A stretch of 61,615 nucleotides of DNA, from contig CALDSV010000028.1 of NCBI GenBank assembly GCA_937924475.1, forward strand, positions 1 to 61,615, written 5' to 3'. How positions within the stretch are numbered: position 1 is the stretch's first letter; each line of letters opens with the position of its first letter. The notes beneath the pieces are model-generated. The model ran no database searches and was not told the origin of the DNA. It worked only from the letters and a program-made list of their open reading frames with translations. Origin of the DNA: an uncultured bacterium (GTDB taxonomy: Bacteria > Nitrospirota > Thermodesulfovibrionia > Thermodesulfovibrionales > Thermodesulfovibrionaceae). Both the position numbers and the translations under genes were made by a program. Positions 41,856 through 59,386 of the stretch are shown here, piece by piece.

Positions 41856-41929
41856 TGCGCCCAGGAGGATTTGAACCCCCGACCTGCGGATTCGTAGTCC
41901 GACGCTCTATCCAACTGAGCTATGGGCGC
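41856..41929 (-). tRNA. tRNA-Arg(ACG)
   Basis: On the reverse strand a complete cloverleaf folds: acceptor GCGCCCA/TGGGCGC, anticodon stem TCGGA/TCCGC with loop CTACGAA (anticodon ACG, arginine CGN codons after A-to-I editing), T-loop TTCAAAT, discriminator A, no encoded CCA. The 5' half (39 nt) is repeated at 59348-59386, so this is the integration target. The intact gene now combines a chromosomal 3' half with an element-derived 5' half and upstream region. Confidence 0.95.
41891..41929 (-). repeat. attL, left 39-bp direct repeat
   Basis: The 39 bp from the tRNA 5' end through the anticodon loop are identical to 59348-59386. The identity stops at 41890 (a) versus 59347 (t), and after 41929 (aaagc) versus 59386 (ttaag). 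The crossover therefore took place in the 5' half or anticodon loop of the tRNA gene, not at the more common 3' end. Confidence 0.9.
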
Positions 41930-41980
41930 AAAGCTTTTAATTTCAGATATTTTTGATATACTGATAATATAATTATAACA

Positions 41981-42003
41981 TAAACTGTGATAAAATCGTG
42001 ACA
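41981..42003 (-). promoter_or_regulatory. tandem TTATCACAG-type motif between integrase and tRNA-Arg
   Basis: Read on the reverse strand, TTGTCACGATTTTATCACAG contains two TTRTCAC words 11 bp apart. It matches 19947-19968 next to the dead integrase in 18 of 19 central bases. Further downstream on the same strand is TGTTATAAT, an extended -10 box that could drive tRNA-Arg. It may be an integrase arm site, the new tRNA promoter region, or both. Confidence 0.5.
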
Positions 42004-42007
42004 ATTA

Positions 42008-43048
42008 TCACCTTTCCAGAACACTTTTTGCGTCCAGAACTTCAACAAACTGCCTAAGACTTTCCGTATTATAATGTGCGTACCTTTGAGTGCTTTTGAG
42101 ATCTTTGTGCCCCATTAGCTTTGCAACTGTGTATATATCCACTCCAGCCTGAACCAGCCTTGTCGCGAAAGTATGCCTTAGATCGTGAAATCTAAAATTA
42201 TGGATGTTCGCTTTTTTAAGCGCCTTGTAAAACTCCCTTAAAAGGTTTCGATTCATAATTTTTGTTCCGTTACCAGTTGTCCAAATGTATCCTGAGATAT
42301 TCCTGATTTTTTTGCCCATTAAAACCTTGCAGGCGATGTTGTTTAGCGGTATGGCTCTTGGCTTCGTTTTTGTCTCCCTGATTATGGCTACTTTATTTTT
42401 CAGATCTACATCTTCCCATTTTAGGTTTAGAATCTCGCTCTGTCTGAGCCCAGTATTTAGCGCAAAAATAACAATTTCCTTTAATTGTCCATGTAGATAC
42501 GGTGTGAATGTACACGCATCTAGTAGCCTTATCTCTTCATCTTCAGATAGATATCTAACTCTTTCATTGTCTTCTTTGAGAGCACTTACCTTTTCGCAAT
42601 GATTCTCTTTAATCCATTCCCATTGCCTCTTCGCAAGACTCATAGCTCTACTCATAGTCCTAAATTCCCTATTAACTGTCCCTGGTTTTGCTCCCTGCTG
42701 TAATCTTAGCTGCATATATTCCACAATAACCCGTGGTGTTATGTCTTCAAGATATAAACCAGAGAAGTATTCTTTTAGGTGCGTGATTGCTGCTTTGTAT
42801 CGCTTTTGTGTTGATTGTCTTTGTTGTTTTGCATGAGTTTGCATAAAACGTTCTATAAGCTCGTCAAAAGTATGTTTGGCTCTTTCAAAATCAAACCATT
42901 TGCCTTCTGCAATTATTGTTTGGACTTTTGCATAGATTTTCTCTGCAAGTGCTTTATTGGTTGTTCCTGTGCTACGTCTATAGTGCTTATTGCCGACAGA
43001 AAAACACATCCACCAAAACTTAGAGTCTTTTCTTTTATATAATCCCAT
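42008..43048 (-). CDS. tyrosine integrase of the element
   Basis: About 346 residues. The N-terminal AP2-like arm-binding part (MGLYKRKDSKFWWMCFSVGNKHYRRSTGT) and SAM-like core-binding domain (about 60-150) are followed by the catalytic domain with Arg in NTGLRQSEIL, Lys in ETKTKPRAIPL, HxxR in [11 protein letters not shown], His in MGHKDLKS and Tyr in TQRYAHYN. The ATG at 43048 follows AAGGAGGAGGG. A longer frame to 43099 is unlikely. It catalyses integration into tRNA-Arg. Its 3' end is 78 bp from the tRNA. A decayed relative sits at tRNA-Gly. Confidence 0.95.
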   Translation of the reverse strand: MGLYKRKDSKFWWMCFSVGNKHYRRSTGTTNKALAEKIYAKVQTIIAEGKWFDFERAKHTFDELIERFMQTHAKQQRQSTQKRYKAAITHLKEYFSGLYLEDITPRVIVEYMQLRLQQGAKPGTVNREFRTMSRAMSLAKRQWEWIKENHCEKVSALKEDNERVRYLSEDEEIRLLDACTFTPYLHGQLKEIVIFALNTGLRQSEILNLKWEDVDLKNKVAIIRETKTKPRAIPLNNIACKVLMGKKIRNISGYIWTTGNGTKIMNRNLLREFYKALKKANIHNFRFHDLRHTFATRLVQAGVDIYTVAKLMGHKDLKSTQRYAHYNTESLRQFVEVLDAKSVLER

Positions 43049-43129
43049 TAGTCCCTCCTCCTTATAAGGGGGACCAACACTATACTTTTCAATGAACAAA
43101 AGAAGTATAAGTATAATATCATAAAAATC

Positions 43130-43420
43130 TTACCTCAGAATCTCTTTCTTGGCTTGTTCTATGATTTTATTTATTTGTTGTTTGTCTATTTTTTTGTGTG
43201 ATGTATGTGTGATTGTTTGTTTTGTATGTGTGATTGTTTGTTTTGTATTATGTAGGCATTTTTGTATCCACTCATCTATATCCTGCTTTCTAAACCTGAG
43301 CATTTTGGAAGATATTTTTAGTACTGGAATTCTTTTTTCATACACGAGTTTATACACAGTTGTTTTTTTTATTTGCAGTAATTCTGCAACATCAGCAACT
43401 GTGAGAAGTTTTTCTTCCAT
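43130..43420 (-). CDS. xis: excisionase-type helix-turn-helix protein
   Basis: About 96 residues. Residues 1-55 form a MerR-like winged HTH of the excisionase family (LLTVADVAELLQIKKTTVYKLVYEKRIPVLKISSKMLRFRKQDIDEWI). A repeated segment (two copies of KQTITHT, encoded by a 21-bp tandem repeat at about 43204-43250) and a lysine-rich helix follow. The start at 43420 follows CAAGGAGGAGG. It lies directly upstream of the integrase and should steer excision and regulate int. The upstream leader has two strong hairpins. Confidence 0.85.
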   Translation of the reverse strand: MEEKLLTVADVAELLQIKKTTVYKLVYEKRIPVLKISSKMLRFRKQDIDEWIQKCLHNTKQTITHTKQTITHTSHKKIDKQQINKIIEQAKKEILR

Positions 43421-43444
43421 TATTCCTCCTCCTTGCTTGTGGAA

Positions 43445-43507
43445 AGAGGACAGATGGTTTAGTCCATCTGTCCTCTCTAGAGTGCGGGGGGCAAACACGC
43501 ACTCTAG
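43445..43507 (-). promoter_or_regulatory. two adjacent perfect hairpins upstream of xis
   Basis: First: AGAGGACAGATGG and CCATCTGTCCTCT, a 13-bp stem with a 6-base loop (43445-43476). Second: CTAGAGTGCG and CGCACTCTAG, a 10-bp stem with an 11-base loop (43477-43507), which includes the TAG stop of the gene upstream. They touch without a gap. Neither is followed by a long T-run on the reverse strand. They may separate or regulate the outer-membrane gene and xis transcripts, or be protein-binding palindromes. Confidence 0.7.
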
Positions 43508-44490
43508 AAAGTATATTTAATACTTGCTGTGAGTCCTTTGTTGGAAAAATCCTTACTCTTCAATATGTTACATTCAATGGAAAGTGAAAAATCCTTGTAC
43601 TTTCCTGTAATTCCTCCTGCAATTTGGAAAGTGTTAGCGGTCACCTCTATGGTCCTTTTTTTGGTGGTGTAAAAAGAAAATTCCTCTCCTCCTGGCATAG
43701 TAAATATCTCTTTTTGTAGCATTAGAACTTCAAACTGATCTTTTCCCTTGCTGTTTCTTATCATAGCATCACTCCATGCTTGTAGCTTCAGTTTGCCGAG
43801 CTGGAACTCTCGGGCTATTCCTATTCCTGCAACTGTATATGTATTCTTGACCCTATTTGCAATATTTTTCCACCCTATGCCACCCCTTGGCGTGACCTTA
43901 ATACCTACAATTTCTCCGTTCCAACCAATTGTGTTTTCGCTTACAAACCCAAAACCCCATTTATACGGTAGTGAAGTGAAATAAGATACATGAGCGATGT
44001 TATTTGTTTGAATTTGGAAGTCTCGGTATATGTCGACTTTTCCTGTAAGCCTTAATCCTCCTCCAATGTCTTTTTTGTCCCCTTTACTGGTAATAGTAAT
44101 ATTACCGACACCAAAATCAAGTTTGTGGTCAAATTTTGCGTATTCTGTGTATATTGCGCTTAGCAATATGGAAGCTGGATCAAACTCTCGGATGTAGTCT
44201 ATGCCTATATGTTTTATGCTGACATTTGACTTCACAACATCTATATCTCCCTGTATTTTTTTTATTCCTCCCCATACCTGTATAGAGTCACTATTCTTTC
44301 CTGTCTGCATACCTGGCGTGTTTAGTAATGAAAGATGCGCAATATGTGAAACATAAGAATTTACCCCCCGAAGCGCTTTTTGCGCGGCGTAAATCATCAT
44401 ATTTTCTAAGAAGGGATCTTGCGCCCACGCAGTTGAAAATGAAAAAAACACTACCAACACTAATACTAGAGTAGATATAACTTTTTTCAT
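43504..44490 (-). CDS. outer-membrane beta-barrel-like protein
   Basis: About 328 residues from the ATG at 44490, which follows AAGGAGGC. The signal peptide is MKKVISTLVLVLVVFFSFSTAWA. The mature protein has alternating beta strands (KLDFGVGNITITSKGDKKDIGGGLRLTGKVDIYR, GFGFVSENTIGWNGEIVGIKV) and ends KGLTASIKYTF with a terminal phenylalanine, as in barrels inserted by the BAM complex. It is probably a surface porin or autotransporter-like protein carried by the element. A possible role is in mating contact or exclusion; not shown. Confidence 0.7.
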   Translation of the reverse strand: MKKVISTLVLVLVVFFSFSTAWAQDPFLENMMIYAAQKALRGVNSYVSHIAHLSLLNTPGMQTGKNSDSIQVWGGIKKIQGDIDVVKSNVSIKHIGIDYIREFDPASILLSAIYTEYAKFDHKLDFGVGNITITSKGDKKDIGGGLRLTGKVDIYRDFQIQTNNIAHVSYFTSLPYKWGFGFVSENTIGWNGEIVGIKVTPRGGIGWKNIANRVKNTYTVAGIGIAREFQLGKLKLQAWSDAMIRNSKGKDQFEVLMLQKEIFTMPGGEEFSFYTTKKRTIEVTANTFQIAGGITGKYKDFSLSIECNILKSKDFSNKGLTASIKYTF

Positions 44491-44510
44491 GCATGCCTCC
44501 TTTTCATATA

Positions 44511-44663: not shown

Positions 44664-44692
44664 ATATAAAAAATAAAAAAGGGGGAAAGAAA

Positions 44693-45559
44693 ATGAAAAA
44701 AATAATAAGTATACTTGTATGTCTTCTTCTTATGGCATCAACTATACAAGCGCAAGTAAACACTGGAGTAGATGCGAATAAGCAAGTTAGAAAAAGTCAA
44801 GAAAAAGCATTGCAATACCGAAAATCTCGGAGTATAAGCATTGGTGAGTCTGAAAGGAACGCAAGTAGTAATGCAAGAAATTACGCAATGGAGGTAGATA
44901 TGATCTCGCTTATAATGGCAAAAATAGCTAAGTCCGATGATAGATGTAACCTGATAGAAAACCCCCCTCTGTATTCTGATATCTTCCAAACTGAAAGCCC
45001 TGCTTTGATAAACCTGACAAAGCTAAAGTATATAGAAAACCTGGCTAAGATTGGCGGGGAAATAGATATAGTAAATCCTGATGCTTATATTGAAATAGAA
45101 AGGATCGTACAATGTATAAGGTATTATGCTTCTATAATTGACAAAGTCTCAAATACAATTAAACCAAAATATAAATCATATGAAGAGTTAGATAGGCACG
45201 TAGAAAAAATAATCCAAAAGATTAAAGAACAAAAAATAGATAAGATAAGTGTAAAAAATTGTAGATATGCCGGGGACGTAAAGCAAATTGTCTGCACTGG
45301 TGGTATACTAATAGAGTATGCTTTGCCGTTACCAAATGTAACAATTGGGGGTAAGGTGGTGTACCACGGGGCTAAAGCAATTGTAAACAACAAACATATG
45401 AGATATAGTATTATTGCTTCAAATGCAAATGAATTTGCAAAAGTAAAAGATGCAACAGATAACGCGCAAAAAGATCTGACTATAGCTATAAGAGCCTCTG
45501 AAGAGAAAAGTAAGTCTTCTTCTTTTGGGACCAAAATATCTCCCCCTTCATTACAATAG
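44693..45559 (+). CDS. secreted protein of unknown family
   Basis: About 288 residues from the ATG at 44693 behind GGGGGAAAG. The signal peptide is MKKIISILVCLLLMASTIQA. The mature part is largely helical (ALQYRKSRSISIGESERNASSNARNYAMEVDMISLIMAKIAK) with single cysteines (RCNLIEN, VQCIRYY, NCRYAGD, VCTGG). It is the only plus-strand gene of the transfer half, driven by the mirrored promoter, and ends at a palindromic terminator. Unrecognised; it may interact with the outer-membrane protein next door. Confidence 0.65.
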   Translation: MKKIISILVCLLLMASTIQAQVNTGVDANKQVRKSQEKALQYRKSRSISIGESERNASSNARNYAMEVDMISLIMAKIAKSDDRCNLIENPPLYSDIFQTESPALINLTKLKYIENLAKIGGEIDIVNPDAYIEIERIVQCIRYYASIIDKVSNTIKPKYKSYEELDRHVEKIIQKIKEQKIDKISVKNCRYAGDVKQIVCTGGILIEYALPLPNVTIGGKVVYHGAKAIVNNKHMRYSIIASNANEFAKVKDATDNAQKDLTIAIRASEEKSKSSSFGTKISPPSLQ

Positions 45560-45561
45560 AT

Positions 45562-45591: not shown

Positions 45592-45617
45592 ATTTTGATT
45601 TTAGTCTTAATAAGTGA

Positions 45618-46364
45618 TTATTTTTGCTTCCTTTTTATGTTATTAACTTTAGGCTTATTATATTTTGCTTGCAAATATTCAAACAACAAAGGCTTGATTT
45701 TTGCAACTTTACTAGGGTCAACTAGGTAATGTACAAAAATACTAATAGCAATGTTATCTTTAGCTAAAAAGTTAAAGTAAATATCGTTCAAAAATTCTAT
45801 AATTCTATTTTCAGTGATTTCCTCGTTTGGCGTAAGATATTGTCGCATCATTTGTGCTACATAAGGTAGTTTTGCGGCAATGATCATTTTGTCGACAACT
45901 CTGAAGTCTGCACCTTCAGTTTGTATGTTATACTGTATTCCTGCTTGCGATCCTTCTGGTGATTCTATATACATCTTAACAAAATTGTTCCCGTCGTAAT
46001 AGGTGTAATACATTCCATCTTCTACAAACTTATAGTCTGTAACTTTAAAGCCTGACGGGGTTTCTGCCGGTATTAATCTTATGTATATATAATTTCCTAT
46101 TTTTTCAATTGTTCCTCCATATATACAATTAAAGCTTCCAGATAACCAGTCTTTGTCAGGCGCTATTAACATATAAGGGAGGCTCCGTGCTAGTGAACAA
46201 CCACGTACAATAAATGATGATAGTATATTATCCATATTTTTTTTGTGTAGCATAATGATAGTTCTGTCCACCTCGTCACTATCCATATATCGGGGGTCAG
46301 TGGCTGCGCTAGAAATCGTTACAAAGAGTAACATAAACAATAGTATAGTTATTATTTTTCTCAT
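45618..46364 (-). CDS. secreted protein of unknown family
   Basis: A 248-residue protein with a signal peptide (KIITILLFMLLFVTISSA) and a mature mixed alpha/beta part (DKDWLSGSFNCIYGGTIEKIGNYIYIRLIP, FVEDGMYYTYYDGNNFVKMYI). It has a single pair of cysteines (GCSLARS, FNCIYGG), maybe a disulfide. It overlaps the preceding coiled-coil gene by 4 bp and belongs to the coupling-protein operon. Unrecognised; a periplasmic role in transfer is inferred from operon position. Confidence 0.65.
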   Translation of the reverse strand: MRKIITILLFMLLFVTISSAATDPRYMDSDEVDRTIIMLHKKNMDNILSSFIVRGCSLARSLPYMLIAPDKDWLSGSFNCIYGGTIEKIGNYIYIRLIPAETPSGFKVTDYKFVEDGMYYTYYDGNNFVKMYIESPEGSQAGIQYNIQTEGADFRVVDKMIIAAKLPYVAQMMRQYLTPNEEITENRIIEFLNDIYFNFLAKDNIAISIFVHYLVDPSKVAKIKPLLFEYLQAKYNKPKVNNIKRKQK

Positions 46365-46687
46365 TTTTCCTCCTTTTTCTGATTTTCTTCGACTAGTGCT
46401 CTTTCAAACTCCTGAATGTATTCCTGTTCTTTCTTTTCCTTTTCTTTTTGTTTCTGCCTCATTTCCGTTACCTCTTTTTCTGCTTCCTTAGCCTTAGCCT
46501 CATACGTTTCTTTTAGTGCTTTGTCTCTCGTAAAATCTCGCTCAAACTCATTGATTTTTTGTTCCATTCTTGCATCTTCAATCTTCATCTCTGCATCAAT
46601 TTTTTGTTGCTGAATCGTGACGTAATAGAATATTATCATTGCTATAGGTGCTAGCACTATAGCAATCTTAAAAAGATTACCAAGCAT
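46361..46687 (-). CDS. inner-membrane coiled-coil protein
   Basis: A 108-residue protein: one N-terminal helix (IAIVLAPIAMIIFYYVTI) and then a continuous charged coiled coil (KIDAEMKIEDARMEQKINEFERDF to ALVEENQKKEEK). It lies 23 bp after the coupling protein and overlaps the next secreted protein by 4 bp. The design resembles small scaffold proteins that bridge membrane complexes. Family unknown. Confidence 0.65.
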   Translation of the reverse strand: MLGNLFKIAIVLAPIAMIIFYYVTIQQQKIDAEMKIEDARMEQKINEFERDFTRDKALKETYEAKAKEAEKEVTEMRQKQKEKEKKEQEYIQEFERALVEENQKKEEK

Positions 46688-46710
46688 TTCGCCTCCTTTC
46701 TAATTTAATG

Positions 46711-48363
46711 TTAATTTAATAATATAAATCTGTCGTTAAAGATTAGACTCTGATTTTTCACGTCCCGATGTGTATACGCAATCCTCGTCTGTGTTATATC
46801 GTAATTTAAGACTTTAATGTAGAAGTTTAAGTCCCGTAACTTTGAAAACTCAGATGGTAATATTACTCGGTCTGTCTTTCTTCTTCGTGTGATGCTAACC
46901 CCATCTCTAAGGTCTGCGGGTCCCATAGAGTAGCTTTCGTCAGTTTCCACGATCTCTCTATCTCCAAAAAGTTTTGAGATGTAGTCGCAACTAATCGTGT
47001 CGCCTAGAGCAAAACAACATATTGTATTACAATTATTCACTATGGTATTGCAAACCTCATTTCCGTATACCTTTTGCACTTGCGATATGTCCTGGCTTGC
47101 GATCCATACGCTTGCACCTTTGCTTCTTCCTAATTCCAAACACTTGACGATGGTGGGTAACTTCTGAAGGTTAGCAAACTCATCGAGTATAAAAAATATC
47201 TTCCTGCCTGGACTTTCGTCCGAGGAAAGTAAATGCTTCATCGAAATATCCACAAAAAGTGAAAGAATGGGGCGCAAAGTGTCTTGAATGTTGATGTAGT
47301 TTGTGAGGAAAATAATCCCGGGCTGATCATTTATAATCCATTCCTTGATGGAAAAGTTAGAACCTAGATGTCTCATATAATAAAAGCAATTTGTATACTG
47401 TCTCATTGTGGAAAGTACATCTGACGCTACCTTGCTTCCGCTTTCTTTCCCTTGAAGGTACCCTATCGCACGCCTCAAGACGTCTATCTGCACGGCTGCC
47501 TGAGAGAGGACTGCAATGATGTCGTTCTCGGGCATACTACAGTGGCGGTATAAACTTTCATTGCTGGTCTCACCAGATCTAACAAGTAAGTGTAAGATTG
47601 AGGCAAAAACATCTCTTGCACCATCGACCCAGAACTTGTCGTCCCTGTTGCTATGGGGAATCAATGATGCTGCAACTGAGTCTATGTCTGCATCGTTTTT
47701 GATTTCATTGAACAGGTTCCAATGCACGCACCTTATGTCGAGAGGGTTAAAGACTACGTCCCGTTCTGGTACAAAAAAGTGACTTAAGTAGTCTCCCTTA
47801 AGGTCGTGTATTACGACCTTTGCCCTTTCTTTGATTAATTGTTCAATTACATTACATAGCAATGTTGTCTTACCTGTTCCAGACCTTCCTACCAAGAAGA
47901 AGTGCCTAGTTTCCGCCCAGGGGGGTACGGGAATATTCCCAAGCTTTATTCTGTTTTTGCCTCCTCTAGTCCGCATATCTTGTTCTATCTGTTTTTGTAC
48001 CTCTTCCTCACTTGCAAGTTTTACTCCTCTAAGATGCATATCTTGCATTACTTCCATTGCTTTTTTTTGGTATCTTTTAAGTAACTTTGGGAAAATAGCC
48101 CATACTGGGGTTGTGATAAGAAAAAAAATAAAACTTTTTTTTGCGATAATAAAACATACCTGTAGTAACAAGCTAGGTTGTACTGATAAGACCTGCATAG
48201 CATTGCTGAGAGTACCACCACGGAAAAGCAAAAGCAACAAAAAAGTTAGCACCAAGTGAAGCAATAGGCATAACAAAAAAGTGTAAACATATGCCTTTGC
48301 CTCCATTTGCAATTGATGCCATAAAATTTCAAAACCTTTATATTTTTTTGCCTCTTTATACAT
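46711..48363 (-). CDS. type IV coupling protein (VirD4/TrwB/TraD type)
   Basis: A 550-residue ATPase. Two N-terminal membrane helices (about 28-50 and 68-92) precede a DNA-pump domain with Walker A GRSGTGKTTLL near residue 159, the VVIHDLKGDYLSHFF strand, Walker B FFILDEFANL near 391, and WIASQDISQVQKVYG (sensor). It matches TrwB/TraD-type coupling proteins that bring the relaxase-DNA complex to a secretion channel. GGGGAGTGG precedes the ATG. It fits with the MobF relaxase at 49529. Confidence 0.92.
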   Translation of the reverse strand: MYKEAKKYKGFEILWHQLQMEAKAYVYTFLLCLLLHLVLTFLLLLLFRGGTLSNAMQVLSVQPSLLLQVCFIIAKKSFIFFLITTPVWAIFPKLLKRYQKKAMEVMQDMHLRGVKLASEEEVQKQIEQDMRTRGGKNRIKLGNIPVPPWAETRHFFLVGRSGTGKTTLLCNVIEQLIKERAKVVIHDLKGDYLSHFFVPERDVVFNPLDIRCVHWNLFNEIKNDADIDSVAASLIPHSNRDDKFWVDGARDVFASILHLLVRSGETSNESLYRHCSMPENDIIAVLSQAAVQIDVLRRAIGYLQGKESGSKVASDVLSTMRQYTNCFYYMRHLGSNFSIKEWIINDQPGIIFLTNYINIQDTLRPILSLFVDISMKHLLSSDESPGRKIFFILDEFANLQKLPTIVKCLELGRSKGASVWIASQDISQVQKVYGNEVCNTIVNNCNTICCFALGDTISCDYISKLFGDREIVETDESYSMGPADLRDGVSITRRRKTDRVILPSEFSKLRDLNFYIKVLNYDITQTRIAYTHRDVKNQSLIFNDRFILLN

Positions 48364-48364
48364 A

Positions 48365-48571
48365 TTATTCCACTCCCCATTTTTGTTTAATTGCTATGAT
48401 TTTTTCTCGTATTTCTTCCATAGTTATGTTATCTTGTGTAATCATCTTTTCTACCTCCTTGGCAATTTCCAGATAGCAACTTTGTTGTGCAAGTTGTAGC
48501 ATTTCCTGCATCCTTTTAATTCTCTTTTGAAGCATCATTGCATTTACCCTTTTTTTTCTGTTATTCATCAT
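48365..48571 (-). CDS. small basic protein of the relaxosome operon
   Basis: About 68 residues, highly basic at the start (NNRKKRVNAMMLQKRIKRMQEMLQL) and helical throughout. I choose the ATG at 48571 behind GGAGGTG; a GTG lies 6 bp upstream. It overlaps the ribbon-helix-helix gene by 11 bp and ends 1 bp before the coupling protein ATG. A DNA- or relaxase-binding accessory role is likely but no family is recognised. Confidence 0.6.
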   Translation of the reverse strand: MMNNRKKRVNAMMLQKRIKRMQEMLQLAQQSCYLEIAKEVEKMITQDNITMEEIREKIIAIKQKWGVE

Positions 48572-48923: not shown

Positions 48924-48934
48924 TTTTACCTCCT

Positions 48935-52500: not shown

Positions 52501-53014
52501 TTTCCAATATTTTTTCATTGCTTATGCTTCTCCACTCGCCGTCATACCTGGTCTTGTTCACAAAAAAAGCGTGTGTGTGGATCTGGGGGTCAAGGTTTCT
52601 TGATGTATAGTGTAAAAATTTTGCGACTATTGCATTGCCTGTTTTAACAGTCTCTCTCACATTGTTTTTTTGGATCCTTGTTGCCATAAAGTTTTTTTCT
52701 ACATATTCCAGTACTTGGTCTACTGCCCGTTGATGCACTGCGAGGATCTCGTCTCTAAACCTTCCATTGTCCATTTCTGCAAGCACGCTTACGGATTTTG
52801 GCGCCGAGAACGTAAGATCTAACCCTGCGCGGGTATATCCTTGTTCTTTTAGTCCTTCAAGAAGTTTTTGGAAGTCTTCGTGTTTTACCTCGCCGGTCAT
52901 ACCTAGTTCTTCGGCACCTATTCCATACCATACACCTGGGTCCGAAGTATAATAGCTATCACGCTGGAAGTAAGAAGCCGCCTGGTTTATGTGAATGTTC
53001 GCGATGCTAAGCAC
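49529..53014 (-). CDS. MobF relaxase-helicase (TrwC/TraI type) with poly-Q tract
   Basis: 1161 residues from a GTG behind AGGAG. Residues 1-300 are the relaxase: RAGLDLTFSAPKSVSVLAEM and the metal site DPQIHTHAFFVN. Residues about 395-850 are the helicase: Walker A GDAGTGKTTV near 433, IIDEAGMVGS near 520, GDVKQFQSIEAG and TAYKSQGATAQN near 813. Between Walker A and B lies an insert of repeated KTNEKTD. Residues about 872-951 are almost pure Gln with a few Leu and Ser. The C-terminus repeats ETNVEQAK. It nicks oriT and unwinds the transferred strand. A homologous pair with the coupling protein at 46711. Confidence 0.93.
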   Translation of the reverse strand: MLSIANIHINQAASYFQRDSYYTSDPGVWYGIGAEELGMTGEVKHEDFQKLLEGLKEQGYTRAGLDLTFSAPKSVSVLAEMDNGRFRDEILAVHQRAVDQVLEYVEKNFMATRIQKNNVRETVKTGNAIVAKFLHYTSRNLDPQIHTHAFFVNKTRYDGEWRSISNEKILENKLFLGQVYRNELAKALVEKGFRVVYDHKGLFEVLGVPTEVMHYFSSRSEEIARKAQEIRESYIRANESKIREYATLSSRKTKEKNIDIEAIRRKWNREIEKNFFLTVDSLLQQNQQNQQETLIVKAEDAIKIAAQNITTQESVFTKEELLREALKLSIGRYNIDDVQKALQSLMLEKEIIYLAKDQWTKYYTTREVAAKEREIVAFAKQGQGKLTPIMEKEKIEEVIKNFEALKGYQLSEDQKEVAHTILSSSDRLVLVQGDAGTGKTTVMQVVRQACQAMGKTVYGLAPTGKAAQELVVATRQAETIDSFLRQANTKVKTNEKTNEKTDIKTNEKTDEKADVYIIDEAGMVGSLKMYEVLKRINALNPSAKIVMIGDVKQFQSIEAGRIFADMQKAGVTTAKLTTIKRQKNLGYLKATTAASQKNMEEALRRISGLIYQASQDSAVKAIVKEYMKNPDQTLIVVPTNNIRGWINTTIQAKKHGNKNKSPRMYTYNIRVPKNLSATDKMFAHNFKWGDILICTAPMPGFRLGEEVRVVHGDTKNHTITVRKKDETQKEISLVEYGRNFTAFKEREQKFYQGDKVIFLKNDKKIGVRNGQIGEIVSITQHSITFKVDERLVDIDPEQYSYFDLGYAITAYKSQGATAQNVIYYADPEKASFNEVYVALTRGRENIKIYTTDKKQFIEKAQEEILKTSSLDYNVDLSQLLQQSQLLQQQLQQQQQQQLQQQSQEQQQQSQQQQQQSQQQQQQQQQQQQQSLQQSLQQSLQSQSQQLQSQQSIIHHTVLDDAQKGKNEIIMTETRSQGVKFQWGLDLSKLGLGQGSFDRKTYVKKGILRDKVVTQKTEYSIKGNAKSKTEIIKKPLTVRTYTVTTVRVTPHNISLIQGEMKRGLFGRLTPSGGTKIKTVKKEDLQKLIENLRKNGMKNTAKNIEKLQRKVEKRQNIKDAKKMFEAIEKVEKQLRQLEQTKETNVEQAKETNVEQTITPSRTI
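50175..50400 (-). repeat. CAA/CAG trinucleotide tract encoding poly-Gln
   Basis: The plus strand shows long runs of TTG/CTG triplets; on the coding strand these are CAA and CAG codons with occasional Leu and Ser codons. Mixed codons indicate an old, stable tract that has been selected at protein level, while adjacent perfect blocks suggest ongoing slippage. Confidence 0.85.
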
Positions 53015-53410: not shown

Positions 53411-53706
53411 TTGACAATTTTTTTAGAAAAATGTACCATACGTATATAGATAGTTATTTCTCTCACGGCTTTGCCGTGTCTATTTTTTTAGCCTATTATG
53501 ATGGGCTAAAGAGGATTAAGCCGCAATTTTCCTCCTTTTTTTTCCCAGGGACTCTCCCTGGATAGGGGAGTTTTTCATTTTTTTCGGGCATACATAGCTG
53601 GCGGTCTTCCCGACTGATTCTCCATGCTTTTTCTCCTATGGGACCACGCAGGACAGACACATAGTGGCTGTCTTGCGTGGAAAAATACCCACATAGGGGG
53701 CAAAGA
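53411..53706 (+). promoter_or_regulatory. promoter and long structured leader of the replication operon
   Basis: A promoter TTGACA (53411) and TACCAT with a 17-bp spacer starts a 260-base leader. It holds CACGGC-TTT-GCCGTG with a T-tract (53464-53490), an intrinsic terminator. TTTAGCC...GGCTAAA (53487-53510) would capture that T-tract. CCAGGGA-CTC-TCCCTGG (53544-53560) is exclusive with ACTCTCCC...GGGGAGT plus T-tract, a terminator/antiterminator pair. A 13-bp imperfect stem lies at 53644-53680. CCTATGGG (about 53636-53643) can pair with CCC-AC-ATAGG at the ribosome site of the next gene. This is a strong candidate for attenuation or antisense copy-number control. Confidence 0.65.
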
Positions 53707-54141
53707 ATGAAGCAAAAAGCCCAAAAAATCAATGAGTTTTTTCACACCAACTACGCGCGTCTGCGTGCAATCTGCCAGTCAAGGTGGAACGGCAAAGGAG
53801 AGGATGTGTTACACGAGGTTTACGTCTGCATGATGGAGCGAAATATACGATGCCTTGACGAAAAGTACATCTGGAAGACCTTCCATATTTTCGCGAAGGA
53901 AATTGCCGCAAGGAAATATCCAGAAATCATGCCGTACGGGGAAGACATGACATACGAGGAATGCAGAACCAGCCGAGATCGCAGAAAAACAAGAGAAAGG
54001 ATAGCCAAACACATATACACAGTGTGTGATGAAGATGGGGAGCAAGATCAGGAAAAGAAAAAAATACATAAGCACATAGCCAAACTGGTAGAGCAACACA
54101 AAAAATCCCAAATGTGCCTATTCCTAGTGGGGGTGGAGTGA
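53707..54141 (+). CDS. sigma-70 region-2-like protein
   Basis: About 144 residues from the ATG at 53707 behind AGGGGG. Residues 8-75 (INEFFHTNYARLRAICQSRWNGKGEDVLHEVYVCMMERN, YIWKTFHIFAKEIAARKYPE) follow the pattern of sigma region 2: helix, acidic DVLHEVYVCM, then IW...FAKEIAAR. No region 4 follows; the rest is a charged tail. The stop overlaps the primase start. It could be a minimal sigma factor, an anti-sigma decoy or another nucleic-acid binder. It heads the replication operon. Confidence 0.5.
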   Translation: MKQKAQKINEFFHTNYARLRAICQSRWNGKGEDVLHEVYVCMMERNIRCLDEKYIWKTFHIFAKEIAARKYPEIMPYGEDMTYEECRTSRDRRKTRERIAKHIYTVCDEDGEQDQEKKKIHKHIAKLVEQHKKSQMCLFLVGVE

Positions 54142-55877
54142 TGAAAATTGAGGCAATCCCTGAAATCCTAAAACAAAAGAAGCAATGGTGCTACTGGAAA
54201 GGCATAGATGGAAAAAAAATACCATGCAACGAATATGGAAAACCAATAGATATAACAAATCAAGAGAACTTGCTAAGTTTTGAAGTCATACAGAATGATA
54301 TACATAATGGAAAATACGATGGAATAGGCTTTGTTTTGACAGAAGCTGATGGTATTGTAGCAATTGATCTCGACAATTGCTTAGATGGAGAGATAAGCGA
54401 GTATGCGCAATATATCGTGGAATACATGCAGTCATACACCGAGATATCCCCATCTGGGAAAGGATTACATATTCTTCTAATCACCAAAGATAAGTCACAA
54501 TACCAGAACATTAAGAAGAATGGGATTGAAATATACTTTTGGAAAAGATTTATTACCGTCACAGCGAAAACATATCAAAATTATAACACCATTCACGATA
54601 GAACAGAACAGTTGCGTCATCTTATATCTGCAACCACTACACATGTTTTGCCACAGCAAATATGTCCACAAATAAGTCCAGAAGATATGCAAATAATAAG
54701 GCAAAGCATGCATGAAAACCCCAAGATGAAAGACATTTGGGAAGGAAAGTGGAATATGTATTATGCCTCGCATAGTGAAGCTGACCTTGCCTTATGCGCC
54801 TACCTTGCCCGCATTTTCCGAGGTAATGTAAACAAAATAGATGCAGCATTCCGTGCATCAATGTTGTACCGATATAAATGGGACGAAAAAAGAGGAAACG
54901 TAACATATGGGGAACTAACAATACAAAAAGCAATACAAAATATGCATAATATACAAAGCATACAAAGCATACAGAACAATATAGAAAATGATTCAAATAA
55001 AGATGAGATTGCCAAGCTTGCAGAGCACATACACATTACATGCAAAATAGATCTTTTTAGCCTCCCAAAAGAGAGAGAGTGGATCATATATCCTTTTATA
55101 CCGCGGGACTGCATTACACTTCTTGCGGGATATGGTGGAACGGGTAAGACAATGATATCACTATACATGATATTATGCGCACTACTCGGGAAACCAATAC
55201 ACAAGCAGTGCCAAACAAAGAAAATAGAAAGCGCAGTCATTGTTTCAGCAGAGGACGACATACACGAGATACACTCACGGTTGTTTAGAATTTCGCGCTA
55301 TATGATAGATACGAAAAAATGCACTATTGAAGAAATACAAGAGGTACAGAAAAAAATAATAATCATCACAAACGACTTTCAAGGATATGACTTCCTGATA
55401 AAGTCCAATAGGTATGATGTGGAAGCAAGTTCACTATACCATGCAATTAAGAGAATTGTTACAAGAGATACAATAGTATACATTGATGCTCTAACGTCCT
55501 GTATAAGCATCGAGTTCAACAATGCCATGCAAGTACAGAAGGCATTACAGATATTGCATAATCTAGGTTGCACGGTATTTATGAGCCATCATCTCAACAA
55601 AGCGTTTGAGACTGACATAGAAAAAATGCAAAATTACATCTTAGGATCTTCAAGCATCACCAACAGAGCAAGACAGGCTATAATTTTGTACCGAAATGTA
55701 ATGACAATAGCAAAATCGAACTACACTAGAAAAAAAGCAATACAAATATCTTATGACCCTCAATACAACATCATGCTCCCTACACAACAAGACATCATTG
55801 ATTTCCAAGACTTTAGCGCACTTTTTGAGGCAAAAACCATGAAGAGAAGGAGGGAGTATACATATGATCCATTCTGA
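54141..55877 (+). CDS. prim-pol / RepA-type helicase fusion
   Basis: About 578 residues. Residues 1-165 are an archaeo-eukaryotic primase/polymerase domain of the NrS-1 or plasmid type: DGIGFVLTEADGIVAIDLDNC with the DxD metal site, ISPSGKGLHIL, and IEIYFWKRFITVTAKTY. About 215-275 form a PriCT-like linker (DLALCAYLARIFRG, YRYKWDEKRGNVTYGELTIQKAI). From about 320 there is a RecA-fold hexameric helicase: GYGGTGKTMISLYM, VIVSAEDDIHEIHSR, DTIVYIDALTS and VFMSHHLNKAFE. It combines the primase and helicase roles that IncQ plasmids divide between RepB and RepA. Confidence 0.85.
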   Translation: MKIEAIPEILKQKKQWCYWKGIDGKKIPCNEYGKPIDITNQENLLSFEVIQNDIHNGKYDGIGFVLTEADGIVAIDLDNCLDGEISEYAQYIVEYMQSYTEISPSGKGLHILLITKDKSQYQNIKKNGIEIYFWKRFITVTAKTYQNYNTIHDRTEQLRHLISATTTHVLPQQICPQISPEDMQIIRQSMHENPKMKDIWEGKWNMYYASHSEADLALCAYLARIFRGNVNKIDAAFRASMLYRYKWDEKRGNVTYGELTIQKAIQNMHNIQSIQSIQNNIENDSNKDEIAKLAEHIHITCKIDLFSLPKEREWIIYPFIPRDCITLLAGYGGTGKTMISLYMILCALLGKPIHKQCQTKKIESAVIVSAEDDIHEIHSRLFRISRYMIDTKKCTIEEIQEVQKKIIIITNDFQGYDFLIKSNRYDVEASSLYHAIKRIVTRDTIVYIDALTSCISIEFNNAMQVQKALQILHNLGCTVFMSHHLNKAFETDIEKMQNYILGSSSITNRARQAIILYRNVMTIAKSNYTRKKAIQISYDPQYNIMLPTQQDIIDFQDFSALFEAKTMKRRREYTYDPF

Positions 55878-56607
55878 TAGTAAAAACAAAATAAATGGTA
55901 TAATCAATGTATATAGAAGAATAATAAAATACCCTTGCTGCGCTTTGCAACGCAAAAAAGGACCTATGATGCTAAAACATCACAGCAAAAATGGCACTGT
56001 AACAGTACAAGCCCCAGAATATGTTACAACTGAAGATTTTGAAAAGCTATACATTGTTTTAATGCTTGCGCAGCAAAAAAAGTGTAAGGTAGAGGAGACA
56101 GAATATACAATACACATAGAAACAAACATGAAAGATATTGCAGCAGTAATTAATAGTAACAACTATCCTTCCATCTTTGCATCTCTGGAACGCCTCGCAA
56201 AGATAACGGTGAAATATAACTTTTATAATGTGGTTGGTATATTACACGTTTTGGATTGCGTGGAGTGGAACAAACAAAATGGAAAGGTAAAAATTAACAT
56301 AAACAAAAACTTTTTTGATCTATGTCGCATGAAGTTTCTATCCCTAAACTGTATAACATATACAAAACTTTCACCAGCCGCAAGAAATATATATTGCTTT
56401 CTCATATCCAATTCTCAAAACACATATAACGAGGAAATACTTATAGAAAGGGGTGTGATCCAATGTACCAGGAGAGATAACGCTCGTAGACTTTTAAAGC
56501 AAGCTTTAGATGATCTTGTTCAAGCCAGAATCATACAATCATACAAAGTAAAAAAGTCAGAAAAAGGCTATATGTATAAAATTGTTCGTACAAATCCCCA
56601 GCGGTAG
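55864..56607 (+). CDS. replication initiator-like protein
   Basis: A 247-residue protein. The ATG at 55864 lies behind AAGGAGGG and overlaps the primase-helicase gene by 14 bp. The sequence shows two winged-helix-like parts (FEKLYIVLMLAQQKKCKV, DIAAVINSNNYPSIFASLERLAKITVKYNFYNVVGILHVLD, and TKLSPAARNIYCFLISNSQN...RDNARRLLKQALDDLVQARIIQSY), a layout shared by RepC/TrfA-type initiators. It probably binds the iterons at 49154 and loads the helicase. Assignment is by pattern and context. The last codons form the first arm of a hairpin. Confidence 0.65.
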   Translation: MIHSDSKNKINGIINVYRRIIKYPCCALQRKKGPMMLKHHSKNGTVTVQAPEYVTTEDFEKLYIVLMLAQQKKCKVEETEYTIHIETNMKDIAAVINSNNYPSIFASLERLAKITVKYNFYNVVGILHVLDCVEWNKQNGKVKININKNFFDLCRMKFLSLNCITYTKLSPAARNIYCFLISNSQNTYNEEILIERGVIQCTRRDNARRLLKQALDDLVQARIIQSYKVKKSEKGYMYKIVRTNPQR

Positions 56608-57028: not shown

Positions 57029-57118
57029 ATGTCTAAATTGGGAAAGCTCTCAATTTTTATTTATTCTATTGGTTTAGTAATTGTCTTTCTTGAACCTGAT
57101 CTGGAGGGGATATTATGA
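57029..57118 (+). CDS. 29-residue membrane peptide before the methyltransferase
   Basis: An ATG behind AAAAGGAGAG starts a frame with hydrophobic core LSIFIYSIGLVIVFL and end EPDLEGIL. Its stop overlaps the methyltransferase start (ATGA). The DNA encoding its last codons (GGAGGGG) serves as the ribosome site for the methyltransferase. It is probably a leader peptide giving translational coupling; it may also be the head of a lost gene. Confidence 0.45.
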   Translation: MSKLGKLSIFIYSIGLVIVFLEPDLEGIL

Positions 57119-57963
57119 CTCACCATAAGTTAATAATTGGAAATTGTATGAGTATGCAAGAAATCCCAGATGAAAGTGTTCATTTAGTGGTCACTTCACC
57201 ACCATATTTTAATGCCCCATTTGACTATAAAGGATTATTTAAAAGTTATGACCAATACTTAGAGGTCTTAAATAGGACAGCTCAAGAAATATTTAGAGTT
57301 CTACAAAAAGGTAGAATTGCTGTAATAAATATTGATGATATGCTTGTAGACGGTGAGAAATTCCCGATTGTTGCTGATGCTACAAAGATATTTCAAAATG
57401 TTGGTTTTAGATACAGAGATCGGATTATTTGGAAAAAACCCGATGGCTATTTAAGGATTAGCCGAAGAAGTGGTGTTCTTTTACAAAATCCATATCCGAT
57501 GTATTTTTATCCTGATAATTTACTGGAAAGCATATTAATATTCCAAAAAGGCAAGTTTGACTATCGCACAATATCAAAAGAGTTAAAAGAAGCATCAAAG
57601 ATTGACACAAAAGAGTTTTCTGAAAACAAGTGGTATATGACGATCTGGGAAATGGTTAATGTTTTGCCTGGTTCACCATTAGAAAAAGAGATTGCTGCTT
57701 TTCCTGAGGAACTACCTTACAGAATTATAAAACTTTTTTCTTACAAAGGGGAGACAGTTTTAGACCCTTTTGTAGGAAGTGGAACAACTATGAAAGTGGC
57801 AAGGCAACTTGGAAGAAATAGCATCGGGATAGAAATTAAAAAATCATTAATTCCTATAATTAAGAAGAAACTGGGTTTTGACGAACAGTTAAATCTTGAT
57901 AATCAAGGTGATACTTTTGAACTGATAATAAGGAAAGGGGGCAAACATGGATGTATCAGCTAA
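57115..57963 (+). CDS. type II DNA methyltransferase (beta class)
   Basis: A 282-residue amino-methyltransferase. The catalytic motif IV TSPPYFNAPFDYKG is near residue 30 and SAM motif I DPFVGSGTTMKVARQLGRNSIGIEI near residue 225. This order (catalytic before SAM) and the SPPY motif mark N4-cytosine or N6-adenine enzymes of the beta class. It overlaps the endonuclease gene by 17 bp. It protects host DNA at the sites cut by its partner. The recognition site is unknown. Confidence 0.92.
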   Translation: MTHHKLIIGNCMSMQEIPDESVHLVVTSPPYFNAPFDYKGLFKSYDQYLEVLNRTAQEIFRVLQKGRIAVINIDDMLVDGEKFPIVADATKIFQNVGFRYRDRIIWKKPDGYLRISRRSGVLLQNPYPMYFYPDNLLESILIFQKGKFDYRTISKELKEASKIDTKEFSENKWYMTIWEMVNVLPGSPLEKEIAAFPEELPYRIIKLFSYKGETVLDPFVGSGTTMKVARQLGRNSIGIEIKKSLIPIIKKKLGFDEQLNLDNQGDTFELIIRKGGKHGCIS

Positions 57964-59017
57964 AATAACGGGTATAAACTATACTCCATTTCTAAGTCGT
58001 TTAATGAATCAACACAAAATAGATGAAATAGATTTTGCTTTTAGTAAAGACGCAGCATTTGTGTTAAATATTCAAGAAGACAAACAAGTTGCTTTAAGCT
58101 GGTGGGTATCTCCAAAGAGAACTAGATCATACCCTTATGCACGAGTTTATGACACTTTAAATTTTCAAGGTAAAAAAGTAACAATCATTCCTATATTTAA
58201 AGATGAGGGCAAAGATGGAGATAGAGATTTTATACAATGGGATACTGTTTCATTAATGAGTTTATTAGGTGTATATGTGATTATAACTTATTATAAAAGC
58301 GCTGAAAAAAGTTCAAGATACAAGCATAAAATAACAAATCAAAGATTTGATTATGATCATTTAAAAGAAGAACTAAAAAATATTTTGTCTTACCATTCCG
58401 ATGCTTTACACTGGAATCTTGCACAAATTGAAAAAGTTGGCGAGATTGCTCAGAAAGCTTTAAGTTCTTATAAAGAAATCTCAAAGCAACTTGGTGTTAA
58501 TATGCATTCAGAGGAATTAGTAAAAAAAAGAATTAATAAACTCTATAAAGAAAAAGAGACTTTTATGTCGTTTTCAAGAGAGTTAGCAAAGAAAGCTCAA
58601 AATAGAGAGTCCTTAACAGTTCAACCAAAAGAAAGATTAACTGGGGTTAAGGCTACCCTTACAATTGAAAATTATCTCGGAGGATATTATTTCTTTACTT
58701 GCGATGAGGTTAATATTGAGAAAGGAAATATTTATCTGGTGGAAGGAAAACATAGCCAGCAAAGGTTTCTTCCATCATTAGAAGATATAAAGGATGGTTT
58801 AGTAAAGATGATTTTATTTACAAATTTAAGAGAGGTAAAAATTGGAAACATTGAATACACTCCTATGCCTATATTAAAGCTTACAACAGATTTAAGCTTT
58901 TCAATCAATAAACTAAGAAGCTCGGATAGGGAGGTGCTAAAGCTTCTTCAACAAGAAGCAGAAAAAAATGGTTTTCAGGTATTAATTAATGATACAAATT
59001 TAGAAGATATTATTTAA
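57947..59017 (+). CDS. restriction endonuclease partner
   Basis: A 356-residue soluble protein overlapping the methyltransferase. GGGGGCAAAC lies before its ATG. A PD-(D/E)xK-like core may be NIEKGNIYLVEGKHSQQRF near residue 255, where E-G-K follows a beta strand; the earlier IDEIDFAFSKDAAFVLNI is also acidic. I do not recognise its exact family. The tight link to a beta-class methyltransferase makes a type II endonuclease the best call. Confidence 0.75.
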   Translation: MDVSAKITGINYTPFLSRLMNQHKIDEIDFAFSKDAAFVLNIQEDKQVALSWWVSPKRTRSYPYARVYDTLNFQGKKVTIIPIFKDEGKDGDRDFIQWDTVSLMSLLGVYVIITYYKSAEKSSRYKHKITNQRFDYDHLKEELKNILSYHSDALHWNLAQIEKVGEIAQKALSSYKEISKQLGVNMHSEELVKKRINKLYKEKETFMSFSRELAKKAQNRESLTVQPKERLTGVKATLTIENYLGGYYFFTCDEVNIEKGNIYLVEGKHSQQRFLPSLEDIKDGLVKMILFTNLREVKIGNIEYTPMPILKLTTDLSFSINKLRSSDREVLKLLQQEAEKNGFQVLINDTNLEDII

Positions 59018-59202
59018 GGACGAATATGAAAATAACCATTTTTTATTTTTGGATCCCATTTGGTCAAAGTATTTTTTTCAACTCTAAACAAATCACTTTT
59101 ATAATAACTCCAACAAAAAAGGGGGATATCTTATTATATCCCTTCCTCCAAAAATGTCTCTAAAATAATTACAGAGAGACTTTTTTGGGGGATAAGGTCC
59201 AA

Positions 59203-59222
59203 AAAAAAACCGTGAAAAAAAC
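59203..59222 (+). repeat. direct repeat framing the R-M cassette, right copy
   Basis: AAAAAAACCGTGAAAAAAAC, the same 20 bases as 56739-56758; the match continues as GTG with one base missing. Confidence 0.5.
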
Positions 59223-59300
59223 GTGAGAGAAAGGGAGAGAATATAACTAAAAATAATCAATCATATATAAAACAAGAATTACAAAAACCTCTTGATTTTA

Positions 59301-59343
59301 TTGAATTTTCAAGCATAGTGTTGGTCCCCCGAATGTTCTGGAT
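59301..59343 (-). repeat. remnant joining integrase upstream and downstream sequences
   Basis: Reverse strand reads TCCAGAACATTC followed by GGGGGACCAACACTAT and CTTGAAAATTCAA. The second piece matches 43068-43097 (GGGGGACCAACACTAT, CTTTTCAAT), the region before the integrase start. The first matches the integrase end (TCCAGAACACTT, 42016). It looks like an integrase locus reduced by internal deletion, in inverted orientation to the left end. Confidence 0.5.
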
Positions 59344-59347
59344 ATTT

Positions 59348-59386
59348 TTCGTAGTCCGACGCTCTATCCAACTGAGCTATGGGCGC
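59348..59386 (-). repeat. attR, right 39-bp direct repeat
   Basis: Exact copy of 41891-41929. It is the displaced original 5' half of the chromosomal tRNA-Arg gene, from the anticodon loop to the first base. It has no 3' half and is not a functional tRNA. Confidence 0.9.

What the first reader, a model, noticed from the sequence alone, without database searches (positions are those of the whole stretch)
41891..59386. Integrated mobilizable replicon combining MobF transfer, iterons, prim-pol replication and R-M cargo
Seen: 39-bp att repeats, integrase/xis, MobF relaxase, VirD4-type coupling protein, iteron array, prim-pol/helicase and initiator in one 17.5-kb unit. Known: MobF relaxases and IncQ-like replication modules normally occur on plasmids. 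Inference: this is a plasmid that became integrative, able to excise, replicate and be mobilised in a thermophile. I know of no described element with this exact set.
Basis: partly seen in the sequence, partly recalled or inferred. Interest (0 to 1): 0.82.

Follow-up and report, generated by a model that had tools for sequence, protein, structure and literature searches.

The report
Hitchhiking replicon in hot-spring bacterium
A 17.5-kb mobile DNA element sits in an arginine tRNA gene of a heat-loving Thermodesulfovibrio bacterium; it carries genes that look able to cut it out, copy it and have it pulled into other cells through borrowed conjugation machinery, and it has relatives in the same genus.

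Summary
Exact 39-bp repeats (41891-41929, 59348-59386) bound the element; the left one is the 5' half of tRNA-Arg(ACG). Inside are integrase, excisionase, an F-like MobF relaxase, its own TraD/TrwB coupling protein, a PrimPol-RepA fusion, a probable initiator, direct repeats and a type II R-M pair. Ten of 15 congeners show the uninterrupted site. I add: (1) a predicted oriT (hairpin plus F-like nic motif, 49114-49139), with similar features beside traI in relatives; (2) an element with the same backbone, in other block order, between 44-bp repeats of tRNA-Arg(CCT) in a congener; (3) a further relative with blocks 97.8-99.7% identical between species whose compared chromosomal locus is about 73% identical; (4) entry from the tRNA's 5' side, which displaces its promoter. 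No mating-channel gene was found in the element, nor two T4SS ATPase families in its genome; two congeners carry F-type machinery that could help. Best reading: an integrative and mobilizable element with its own replicon. MOBF IMEs and primase-RepA fusions are published separately, hence a new variant of a known kind. Open: whether the repeats are oriV or part of oriT; the initiator call is weak.

The parts
41891..41929 (-). attL core: 5' half of tRNA-Arg(ACG), 39 bp
   Evidence: exact repeat; tRNA
41930..42007 (-). element DNA upstream of the tRNA, with TGTTATAAT ending 42 nt before the tRNA (putative replacement promoter)
   Evidence: the consensus scan found other promoter-like pairs here but does not list this box
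42008..43099 (-). tyrosine integrase (likely start is the internal ATG near 43050, MGLYKRK...)
   Evidence: PF00589 1.9e-35; 58% identical in G009; leader sequence
43068..43087 (-). int-leader copy of a 20-bp site (95% match; 16 bp exact) repeated inverted beside attR
43130..43498 (-). excisionase-like HTH protein
   Evidence: HTH_17 9.1e-16; TIGR01764 1.5e-11, above cut-off
43504..44493 (-). probably exported protein (by eye) without family match; internal start assumed
   Evidence: no hit in Pfam, PHROGs or PADLOC, one insignificant NCBIfam hit
44690..45559 (+). probably exported protein (by eye); homology to relatives not supported
45618..46364 (-). probably exported protein (by eye), unknown
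   Evidence: two weak hits below cut-off
46361..46687 (-). 108-aa protein conserved in relatives (weak matches below cut-off to S49 peptidase N-terminus and Rz-like spanin)
   Evidence: 45-46% identical in G009, G004 and G046b
46711..48363 (-). type IV coupling protein, TraD/TrwB type
   Evidence: PF10412 2.1e-96; TIGR02759 7.2e-89, below its cut-off
48561..48926 (-). MobC/NikA-like relaxosome accessory protein (weak)
   Evidence: NikA-like 1.6e-4, below cut-off; homologues in G004 and G015
49114..49139 (+). predicted oriT: hairpin GCCATT-GCAA-AATGGC then GTCGGGTGT^G (nic predicted between 49138 and 49139)
   Evidence: F-plasmid nic sequence recalled
49154..49464 (.). direct-repeat array (GAGGTGTAAC-based units) with A/T-rich DNA: oriV iterons or relaxosome sites
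49529..53014 (-). MobF relaxase-helicase (TraI/TrwC type, 1161 aa)
   Evidence: PF08751 3e-74; PDB TraI 6.4e-59
53677..54141 (+). sigma-70-region-4-like regulator (inferred through the G009 homologue, itself just under cut-off)
54114..55877 (+). PrimPol (NrS-1/phage type) - HBD - RepA-like helicase fusion
55864..56607 (+). probable replication initiator (distant RepC-like family)
   Evidence: fold attempt uninformative
57115..57963 (+). type II DNA methyltransferase
57947..59017 (+). type II restriction endonuclease
   Evidence: PADLOC PDLC03572 4.7e-98; no hit in the other libraries or on plasmids
59311..59330 (+). attR-proximal copy of the int-leader site
59348..59386 (-). attR core: displaced 5' half of tRNA-Arg, followed by its native promoter

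Best explanation
An integrative and mobilizable element (iMOB type) with its own replicon. Int recombines attP with the 5' half/anticodon arm of tRNA-Arg(ACG) (shown: repeats, uninterrupted sites in congeners; crossover place inferred). Int with the HTH protein excises it (inferred). The circle is copied by the PrimPol-RepA fusion and the RepC-like protein (inferred). For transfer, the MobF relaxase with the small RHH-like protein nicks oriT at 49138/49139 (site predicted, supported by similar sites in relatives), its helicase unwinds the strand, and the element's own TraD-type coupling protein delivers it to a mating channel supplied by a helper, most likely an F-type element like those in two congeners (inferred). 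In the recipient it re-circularises, replicates and integrates; the R-M pair is cargo that can defend host and element (inferred). Because entry is from the 5' side, the tRNA's own promoter is moved 17.5 kb away and element DNA must supply a new one (displacement shown, function inferred).
For: Repeats and tRNA; tRNA and upstream flank contiguous in 10 of 15 congeners; families; same-backbone element in G009 between 44-bp repeats of the tRNA-Arg(CCT) 5' half; related element in G002 between 42-bp repeats, blocks of 97.8-99.7% identity with G004 and G011 against about 73% at one chromosomal locus; relaxase and coupling protein in the same 7 of 16 genus genomes; oriT motif by a strict rule in 5 of 9 loci in the expected gap and once elsewhere in 200.7 kb, and 7 hits in 32 coupling-protein loci, all within about 0.9 kb of traI or the coupling gene; 16 element proteins scanned with Pfam without a mating-channel family; PF03135 in 0 of 16 genus genomes; F-type TraC nearly full length in 2 of 16, not in the own genome, with TraU, TraH, TraG and TraT in G012.
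Against: No excision, copy-number or transfer data. TraC hits stay below the curated cut-off in 16 of 16 genomes. The initiator family is weak and its fold attempt failed. G009's element has no detectable initiator homologue, and no relative locus has the PrimPol domain. In the wider set of 32 coupling-protein loci only 2, both already known relatives, show an initiator homologue, so the replicon is not general there. The repeat array has no equal in the 8 relatives scanned. The own assembly is 94.7% complete, so a helper could be missed. The oriT rule was fixed after seeing the sequences.
Confidence: 0.85

Rival explanations
1. The repeat array is not a replication origin but the relaxosome-loading part of oriT: the RHH-like protein 48561-48926 binds the units next to nic, and the vegetative origin lies elsewhere (for example the A/T-rich gap 56607-57115 after the initiator gene).
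For: The array begins beside the predicted nic site and lies between traI and mobC; the replication genes are 4-7 kb away; 56607-57115 also holds repeated A/T-rich motifs.
Against: Relatives with an oriT-like motif have no comparable array (at most 5 copies of an 8-mer in 350 bp against 10), so it is not needed for mobilisation in them; short direct repeats next to A/T-rich DNA are typical of oriV (recalled).
Confidence: 0.45
2. A decayed integrative and conjugative element that lost its mating channel and is now immobile.
For: Coupling protein and relaxase normally accompany a T4SS (recalled); the G005 and G015 relatives have split coupling-protein frames.
Against: Core genes here are open with catalytic motifs; the G009 and G002/G004/G011 relatives were not seen to carry channel genes either (Pfam on chosen proteins; ORF lists), and one group shares nearly identical blocks between species.
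Confidence: 0.1
3. A phage satellite using PrimPol replication like SaPIs, packaged by a helper phage.
For: The PrimPol part matches PDB 7ola (labelled DNA primase; its SaPI5 origin is recalled) and phage primases; the 108-aa protein has a weak Rz-like spanin match, E 0.0013.
Against: No capsid or packaging family in PHROGs for the 8 element proteins scanned or in Pfam for 16; relaxase, oriT-like site and coupling protein present.
Confidence: 0.03
4. The replicon and the mobilisation block are two separate insertions that happen to be neighbours.
For: The PrimPol domain is confined to this element; block order differs between relatives.
Against: Regulator, RepA helicase, initiator, excisionase, relaxase and coupling protein lie together in G037 and G218, and most of them in G004; no second long repeat pair among the 20 families shown.
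Confidence: 0.03

Closest known systems
MOBF integrative and mobilizable elements of Mesorhizobium (PMC8627217, passages read)
   Same: integrase, MOBF relaxase, no T4SS, mostly tRNA sites; an excision-factor gene downstream of the relaxase in one group
   Different: there mostly Ti-type TraA with TraC/TraD accessory factors; here an F-like TraI, own TraD-type coupling protein, a replicon and an R-M pair
IMEs as reviewed in 2017 (PMC5704250, passages read)
   Same: integrated, relaxase-bearing; some with own VirD4 and replication genes
   Different: that review knew no MobF IME among canonical IMEs and says replication of excised IMEs had never been studied
Integrated mobile elements with AEP primases (PMC5862659, passages read)
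   Same: primase fused to RepA-family helicases, often tRNA-integrated, some mobilizable
   Different: the primase here is closest to NrS-1/phage primases; MobF relaxase and TraD-type coupling protein
pTN3-type archaeal integrases that use the 5' half of tRNA genes (PMC8371274, passages read)
   Same: att equals the 5' half; recombinant tRNA expressed from element DNA
   Different: archaeal; no MobF system recalled there
F plasmid relaxosome (TraI structures; sequence details recalled)
   Same: hairpin followed by GT-N-GGGTGT nic motif; TraI and TraD families
   Different: no mating-channel genes here; shorter relaxase; integrated life style
IncQ plasmids (RSF1010; recalled and via PMC5862659)
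   Same: RepA-type helicase, primase and a possible RepC-like initiator
   Different: primase fused to the helicase, MobF relaxase, initiator similarity below threshold

Membership tests
Integrative and mobilizable element (iMOB) | site-specific integration with own integrase, att repeats, uninterrupted site in relatives | tested here: met
Integrative and mobilizable element (iMOB) | relaxase present | tested here: met
Integrative and mobilizable element (iMOB) | oriT present | tested here: met
   at sequence level only; nicking not tested
Integrative and mobilizable element (iMOB) | no mating-pair-formation genes in the element | tested here: met
   16 element proteins scanned with Pfam, none a channel family; further antisense ORFs not scanned
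Integrative and mobilizable element (iMOB) | excises and is transferred by a helper | not testable with these tools
   no reads or cultures
MOBF relaxases | TrwC domain, N-terminal tyrosines, HUH motif, fused SF1 helicase | tested here: met
   NF041492 238.7 bits, cut-off 100; motifs
F-type coupling proteins (TraD) | TrwB/TraD ATPase domain and TraD_Ftype model over cut-off | tested here: inconclusive
   domain met; TIGR02759 299 bits, cut-off 521
tRNA 5'-half integrating elements | displaced fragment is the 5' part of the tRNA gene, on the 5' side | tested here: met
   also G009
NrS-1-like PrimPol | AEP domain with DxD and SGxGLH motifs plus helix-bundle domain | tested here: met
IncQ replicon | RepC initiator family member | tested here: inconclusive
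   own protein no RepC hit; G004 homologue 17.7 bits, cut-off 22.8; no plasmid match
IncQ replicon | separate RepA, RepB and RepC proteins (recalled) | tested here: not met
   primase and helicase are one protein
Type II restriction-modification system | adjacent MTase and REase of type II families | tested here: met
   activity not tested
Phage satellite | packaging or capsid-remodelling genes | tested here: not met
   none in PHROGs for 8 element proteins (one weak Rz-like spanin match, E 0.0013) or in Pfam for 16

The most novel reading that the evidence does not exclude
A conjugative hitchhiker lineage in thermophilic Nitrospirota in which conjugation and replication are merged at one locus: the MobF nic site runs straight into the replication iterons, so that relaxase and PrimPol-RepA replisome act on one shared origin. 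Its 5'-half integration also places the host's only detected full-length tRNA-Arg(ACG) gene under an element-borne promoter, so that careless deletion of that end would be lethal and the element is held in place.
Probability: 0.2. Interest if true: 0.75.

Novelty: new variant of a known kind. Interest (0 to 1): 0.52.

Why it matters
The top listings of two paper searches (20 of 1,789 and 20 of 668 papers) showed no work on conjugal elements of Thermodesulfovibrio. This family gives a bounded element with a predicted oriT, relatives in 7 of 16 genomes of the genus (the own included) and signs of recent spread between species. It makes a stated gap testable: how excised IMEs replicate (PMC5704250 says this had never been studied). 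It is also a case of the rare 5'-half tRNA integration (159 of 3919 islands in Islander, PMC4383910), where the element has to replace the promoter of a host tRNA gene. The PrimPol-RepA fusion and MobF relaxase from a thermophile could be useful heat-stable enzymes (inference).

Tried and rejected
Full-length relatives of the PrimPol-RepA protein: none by close-relative scans of genome contigs and viral contigs, none covering 80% among 122 matching plasmid records or 412 phage records; in 295 phylum genomes 9 had matches, the own genome with the full protein and 8 with parts. Initiator relatives in viral contigs and plasmids: none. Structure prediction of the initiator from a single sequence: mean pLDDT 40, not searched further. 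I did not give relatives' proteins to the structure tool because its stated rule does not list loci from the fetch from genomes.

Rejected: the idea that the exported-looking proteins next to the coupling gene form a conserved set. Pairwise tests gave no support; only the 108-aa protein is conserved. Rejected: that G013 carries the same element at this tRNA. In the 4.6 kb held upstream it has a different flank, a TraT gene and no integrase. Comparable repeat arrays in 8 relatives: none. Circular contigs among L044, L049, L050: no terminal overlap. att repeats for L115, L122, L129: none of 14 bp or more in the DNA held. REase relatives on plasmids: none.

Cautions. The pattern and the strict rule were written after seeing the window, and one search also after the loose matches, so the window hit is not independent. 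By the strict rule 4 of the 8 other loci meet it (G009, G037, G046, G005) and 4 do not; of these, G004, G015 and G218 have looser versions and G046b none. Loose matches with 2 mismatches also occur outside the gap in G037, G015, G218 and G046b. The random sequences are first-order Markov simulations, 60 per element. The background identity rests on one chromosomal locus.
Full report
What was checked. The window lies in an 80-contig, 1.87-Mb genome, 94.7% complete. The genus is Thermodesulfovibrio: two of its 16 held genomes contain contigs of the same lengths as named Thermodesulfovibrio records (24112 and 21499 bases), the second with a 100% protein match. The 39-bp repeats at 41891-41929 and 59348-59386 are identical. 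The left one is the start of the tRNA-Arg(ACG) gene, from its first base (Rfam) to two bases past the anticodon. G+C is 36.2% inside against 33.5% (left) and 30.9% (right) outside.

Empty site. I searched the tRNA in the genus and aligned the flanks. In 10 of the 15 other genomes (G001, G002, G004, G006, G007, G008, G009, G010, G012, G014) the sequence homologous to 59348 onward runs directly into a complete tRNA-Arg gene (alignments of 351-369 bp, 72-81% identity). G005, G011 and G015 show only 56-67 bp of it, G013 only the 39 bp, and G003 (56% complete) gave no full tRNA. So the 17.46 kb between the repeats is an insertion on the 5' side of the tRNA.

Promoter. In 13 of 13 loci other than the window and G013 a TG(T/G)TATAAT box ends 6-7 nt before the tRNA. 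In the window that native promoter is now beside attR, while the DNA at attL is the element's own and has TGTTATAAT ending 42 nt before the tRNA. G013, whose 5' flank also differs, has the same box 24 nt before the tRNA. A scan of 41850-42150 found 5 promoter-like pairs against 0.8 in shuffles, but the TGTTATAAT box is not one of the listed -10 hexamers. G009's attL side shows no such box. Expression is not shown. Apart from the attR half, the own genome's other matches to this tRNA are at most 80% identical. Islander counted 159 of 3919 islands with a 5' fragment (PMC4383910, passages). A review says that the recombinant tRNA of 5'-half integrating pTN3-like elements is expressed from the integrase promoter and that this is seldom met in bacteria (PMC8371274, passages).

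Sister elements. G009 holds an element of 15.2 kb between exact 44-bp repeats of the 5' half of tRNA-Arg(CCT): integrase 58% identical, sigma-like regulator, RepA-type helicase, excisionase, MobF relaxase, a 129-aa protein in the mobC position, coupling protein and the 108-aa protein. The block order and orientation differ from the window, and no initiator homologue or R-M pair was matched. G002 holds a related one at 283463-307783 between 42-bp repeats of the 3' part of tRNA-Ala(GGC). Against it, G004 has blocks of 99.6% (1.7 kb), 97.8% (2.3 kb) and 88.8% (12.3 kb), G011 blocks of 99.7%, 99.2%, 98.5% (6.9 kb) and 83.3% (3.7 kb), with smaller pieces from 74% up; the one chromosomal locus compared is about 73% identical. 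That is good evidence for transfer between species after they split, with mosaic exchange. Coupling protein and TrwC-domain relaxase occur in the same 7 of 16 genus genomes, the own included. Split frames in G005 and G015 show that some copies are decaying. A named-genome scan gave 32 coupling-protein loci, among them Nitrospirota, Nitrospinota, Deferribacteraceae, Deltaproteobacteria and Thermodesulfobacterium. Of these, 25 show a relaxase match, 9 an integrase match, 2 (both known relatives) an initiator match, and 0 an F-type TraC or TraU match within the DNA held.

Integrase side. In both 5'-entering elements a 15-16-bp site just inside attR recurs inverted in the leader of int (window ATAGTGTTGGTCCCCC, G009 GAGGGTTTGCTGGGA). 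Random sequences gave at most 12 and 11; the 3'-entering G002 element shows 9, within its null. I read this as a shared binding site that ties int expression to recombination (inference). Other integrase relatives just upstream of a tRNA 5' end: L126 (48% identical, tRNA-Pro), L129 (36%, tRNA-Val) and the relic at 18.9-19.9 kb (tRNA-Gly). L122 (44%) and more distant ones (L115, G002, G005) lie at the 3' side, so the habit is not universal.

oriT. Between mobC and traI lies a hairpin (GCCATT GCAA AATGGC) followed by GTCGGGTGTG. The 12-mer pattern, up to one mismatch, occurs once in the window, at 49128-49139; expected 0.04, and 4 of 100 shuffles had a match. Conjugative nic sites lie 3' of a hairpin, with 8 nt between arm and nic for TrwC (PMC4814116, passages); here 9. 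The F nic sequence is very similar (recalled). Loose matches occur in the corresponding gap of 7 of 8 relatives. A strict rule finds 5 in 3.3 kb of gaps (9 loci) and 1 in 200.7 kb elsewhere, and 7 hits in 32 coupling-protein loci, all within about 0.9 kb of traI or the coupling gene. The rule was made after seeing the data; see Tried and rejected.

Replication. The 587-aa protein is an AEP primase-polymerase (PDB 7ola 9.5e-28; NrS-1 6a9w 4.9e-24; DxD and SGxGLH aligned) fused to a RepA-like helicase. Relatives have the helicase alone or, in G004, with a DnaB-N domain. The next gene has homologues in G004 (31%), G037 and G218, and the G004 one hits RepC weakly. The repeats at 49154-49464 are real, but they start beside the predicted nic and have no equal in 8 relatives. 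So a replicon is well supported by gene content, while 'iterons of oriV' is only about an even bet.

Helper. PF03135 is absent from 16 of 16 genus genomes (control: 1 of 14). F-type TraC is nearly complete in G012 and G001 (512 and 503 bits, below the 567-bit cut-off), weak or partial in 4 others, and absent from the own genome. The neighbourhood adds TraU, TraH, TraG and TraT in G012, and in G001 a distant TraD-like protein next to an HD-domain protein that could be a MOBH relaxase (MOBH reading is inference). An F-type channel is therefore present in the genus, and the element's TraD-type coupling protein would fit it (inference).

Literature and verdict. In 2017 no MobF IME was known among canonical IMEs and excised-IME replication had never been studied (PMC5704250, passages). 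In 2021, 24 MOBF IMEs were delimited in Mesorhizobium (PMC8627217, passages). Primase-RepA fusions and primases in integrated mobilizable elements were described in 2018 (PMC5862659, passages). A 2024 review notes that hitchers often encode own relaxases and coupling proteins (PMC11389934, passages). A 2026 Vibrio paper shows MOBF plasmids with F-type channels in the passages seen; the relaxase family of its IMEs was not seen (PMC12824646). I judge this a new variant of a known kind. The combination, the oriT prediction, the 5'-half entry and the spread of a relative raise it above routine; no step of the life cycle is shown experimentally.

Noticed in passing
window 18868-19880 and 19998-20069: Broken integrase relic (pieces 42-66% identical to this Int) ending beside the 5' end of tRNA-Gly(CCC); no repeat of that tRNA of 13 bp or more found in the window.
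   Followed up: partly
window 50153-50377: The relaxase C-terminal part holds a very glutamine-rich stretch of about 75 residues encoded by a low-complexity repeat tract, odd for a relaxase.
   Followed up: no
window 59387-59895: The region upstream of the tRNA is about 1.4 kb shorter than in G002 between homologous ends: deletion here or insertion there.
   Followed up: partly
L102 2137-2883 (G013): A TraT gene (3.5e-60) about 1.7 kb from the 5' side of the same tRNA-Arg(ACG), where G013 lacks the usual flank; perhaps a remnant of a conjugative element.
   Followed up: partly
L077, L078 (G012) and L080, L081 (G001): F-type conjugation genes (TraC, TraU, TraH, TraG, TraT in G012; TraC and an HD-domain plus distant TraD-like pair in G001) in Thermodesulfovibrio; possibly ICEs, borders not sought.
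   Followed up: partly
window 43068-43087 and 59311-59330: Inverted 20-bp site in int leader and beside attR; different sequence but same places in G009.
   Followed up: yes
L108-L110, L111-L113 (G002, G011, G004): Mosaic element with nearly identical blocks next to 74-94% ones across three species.
   Followed up: partly
L115 (Thermodesulfobacterium thermophilum DSM 1276): Coupling protein 51% identical, the 108-aa protein (29%), an integrase (30%) near tRNA-Arg(ACG) and a strict oriT motif upstream of the coupling gene.
   Followed up: partly
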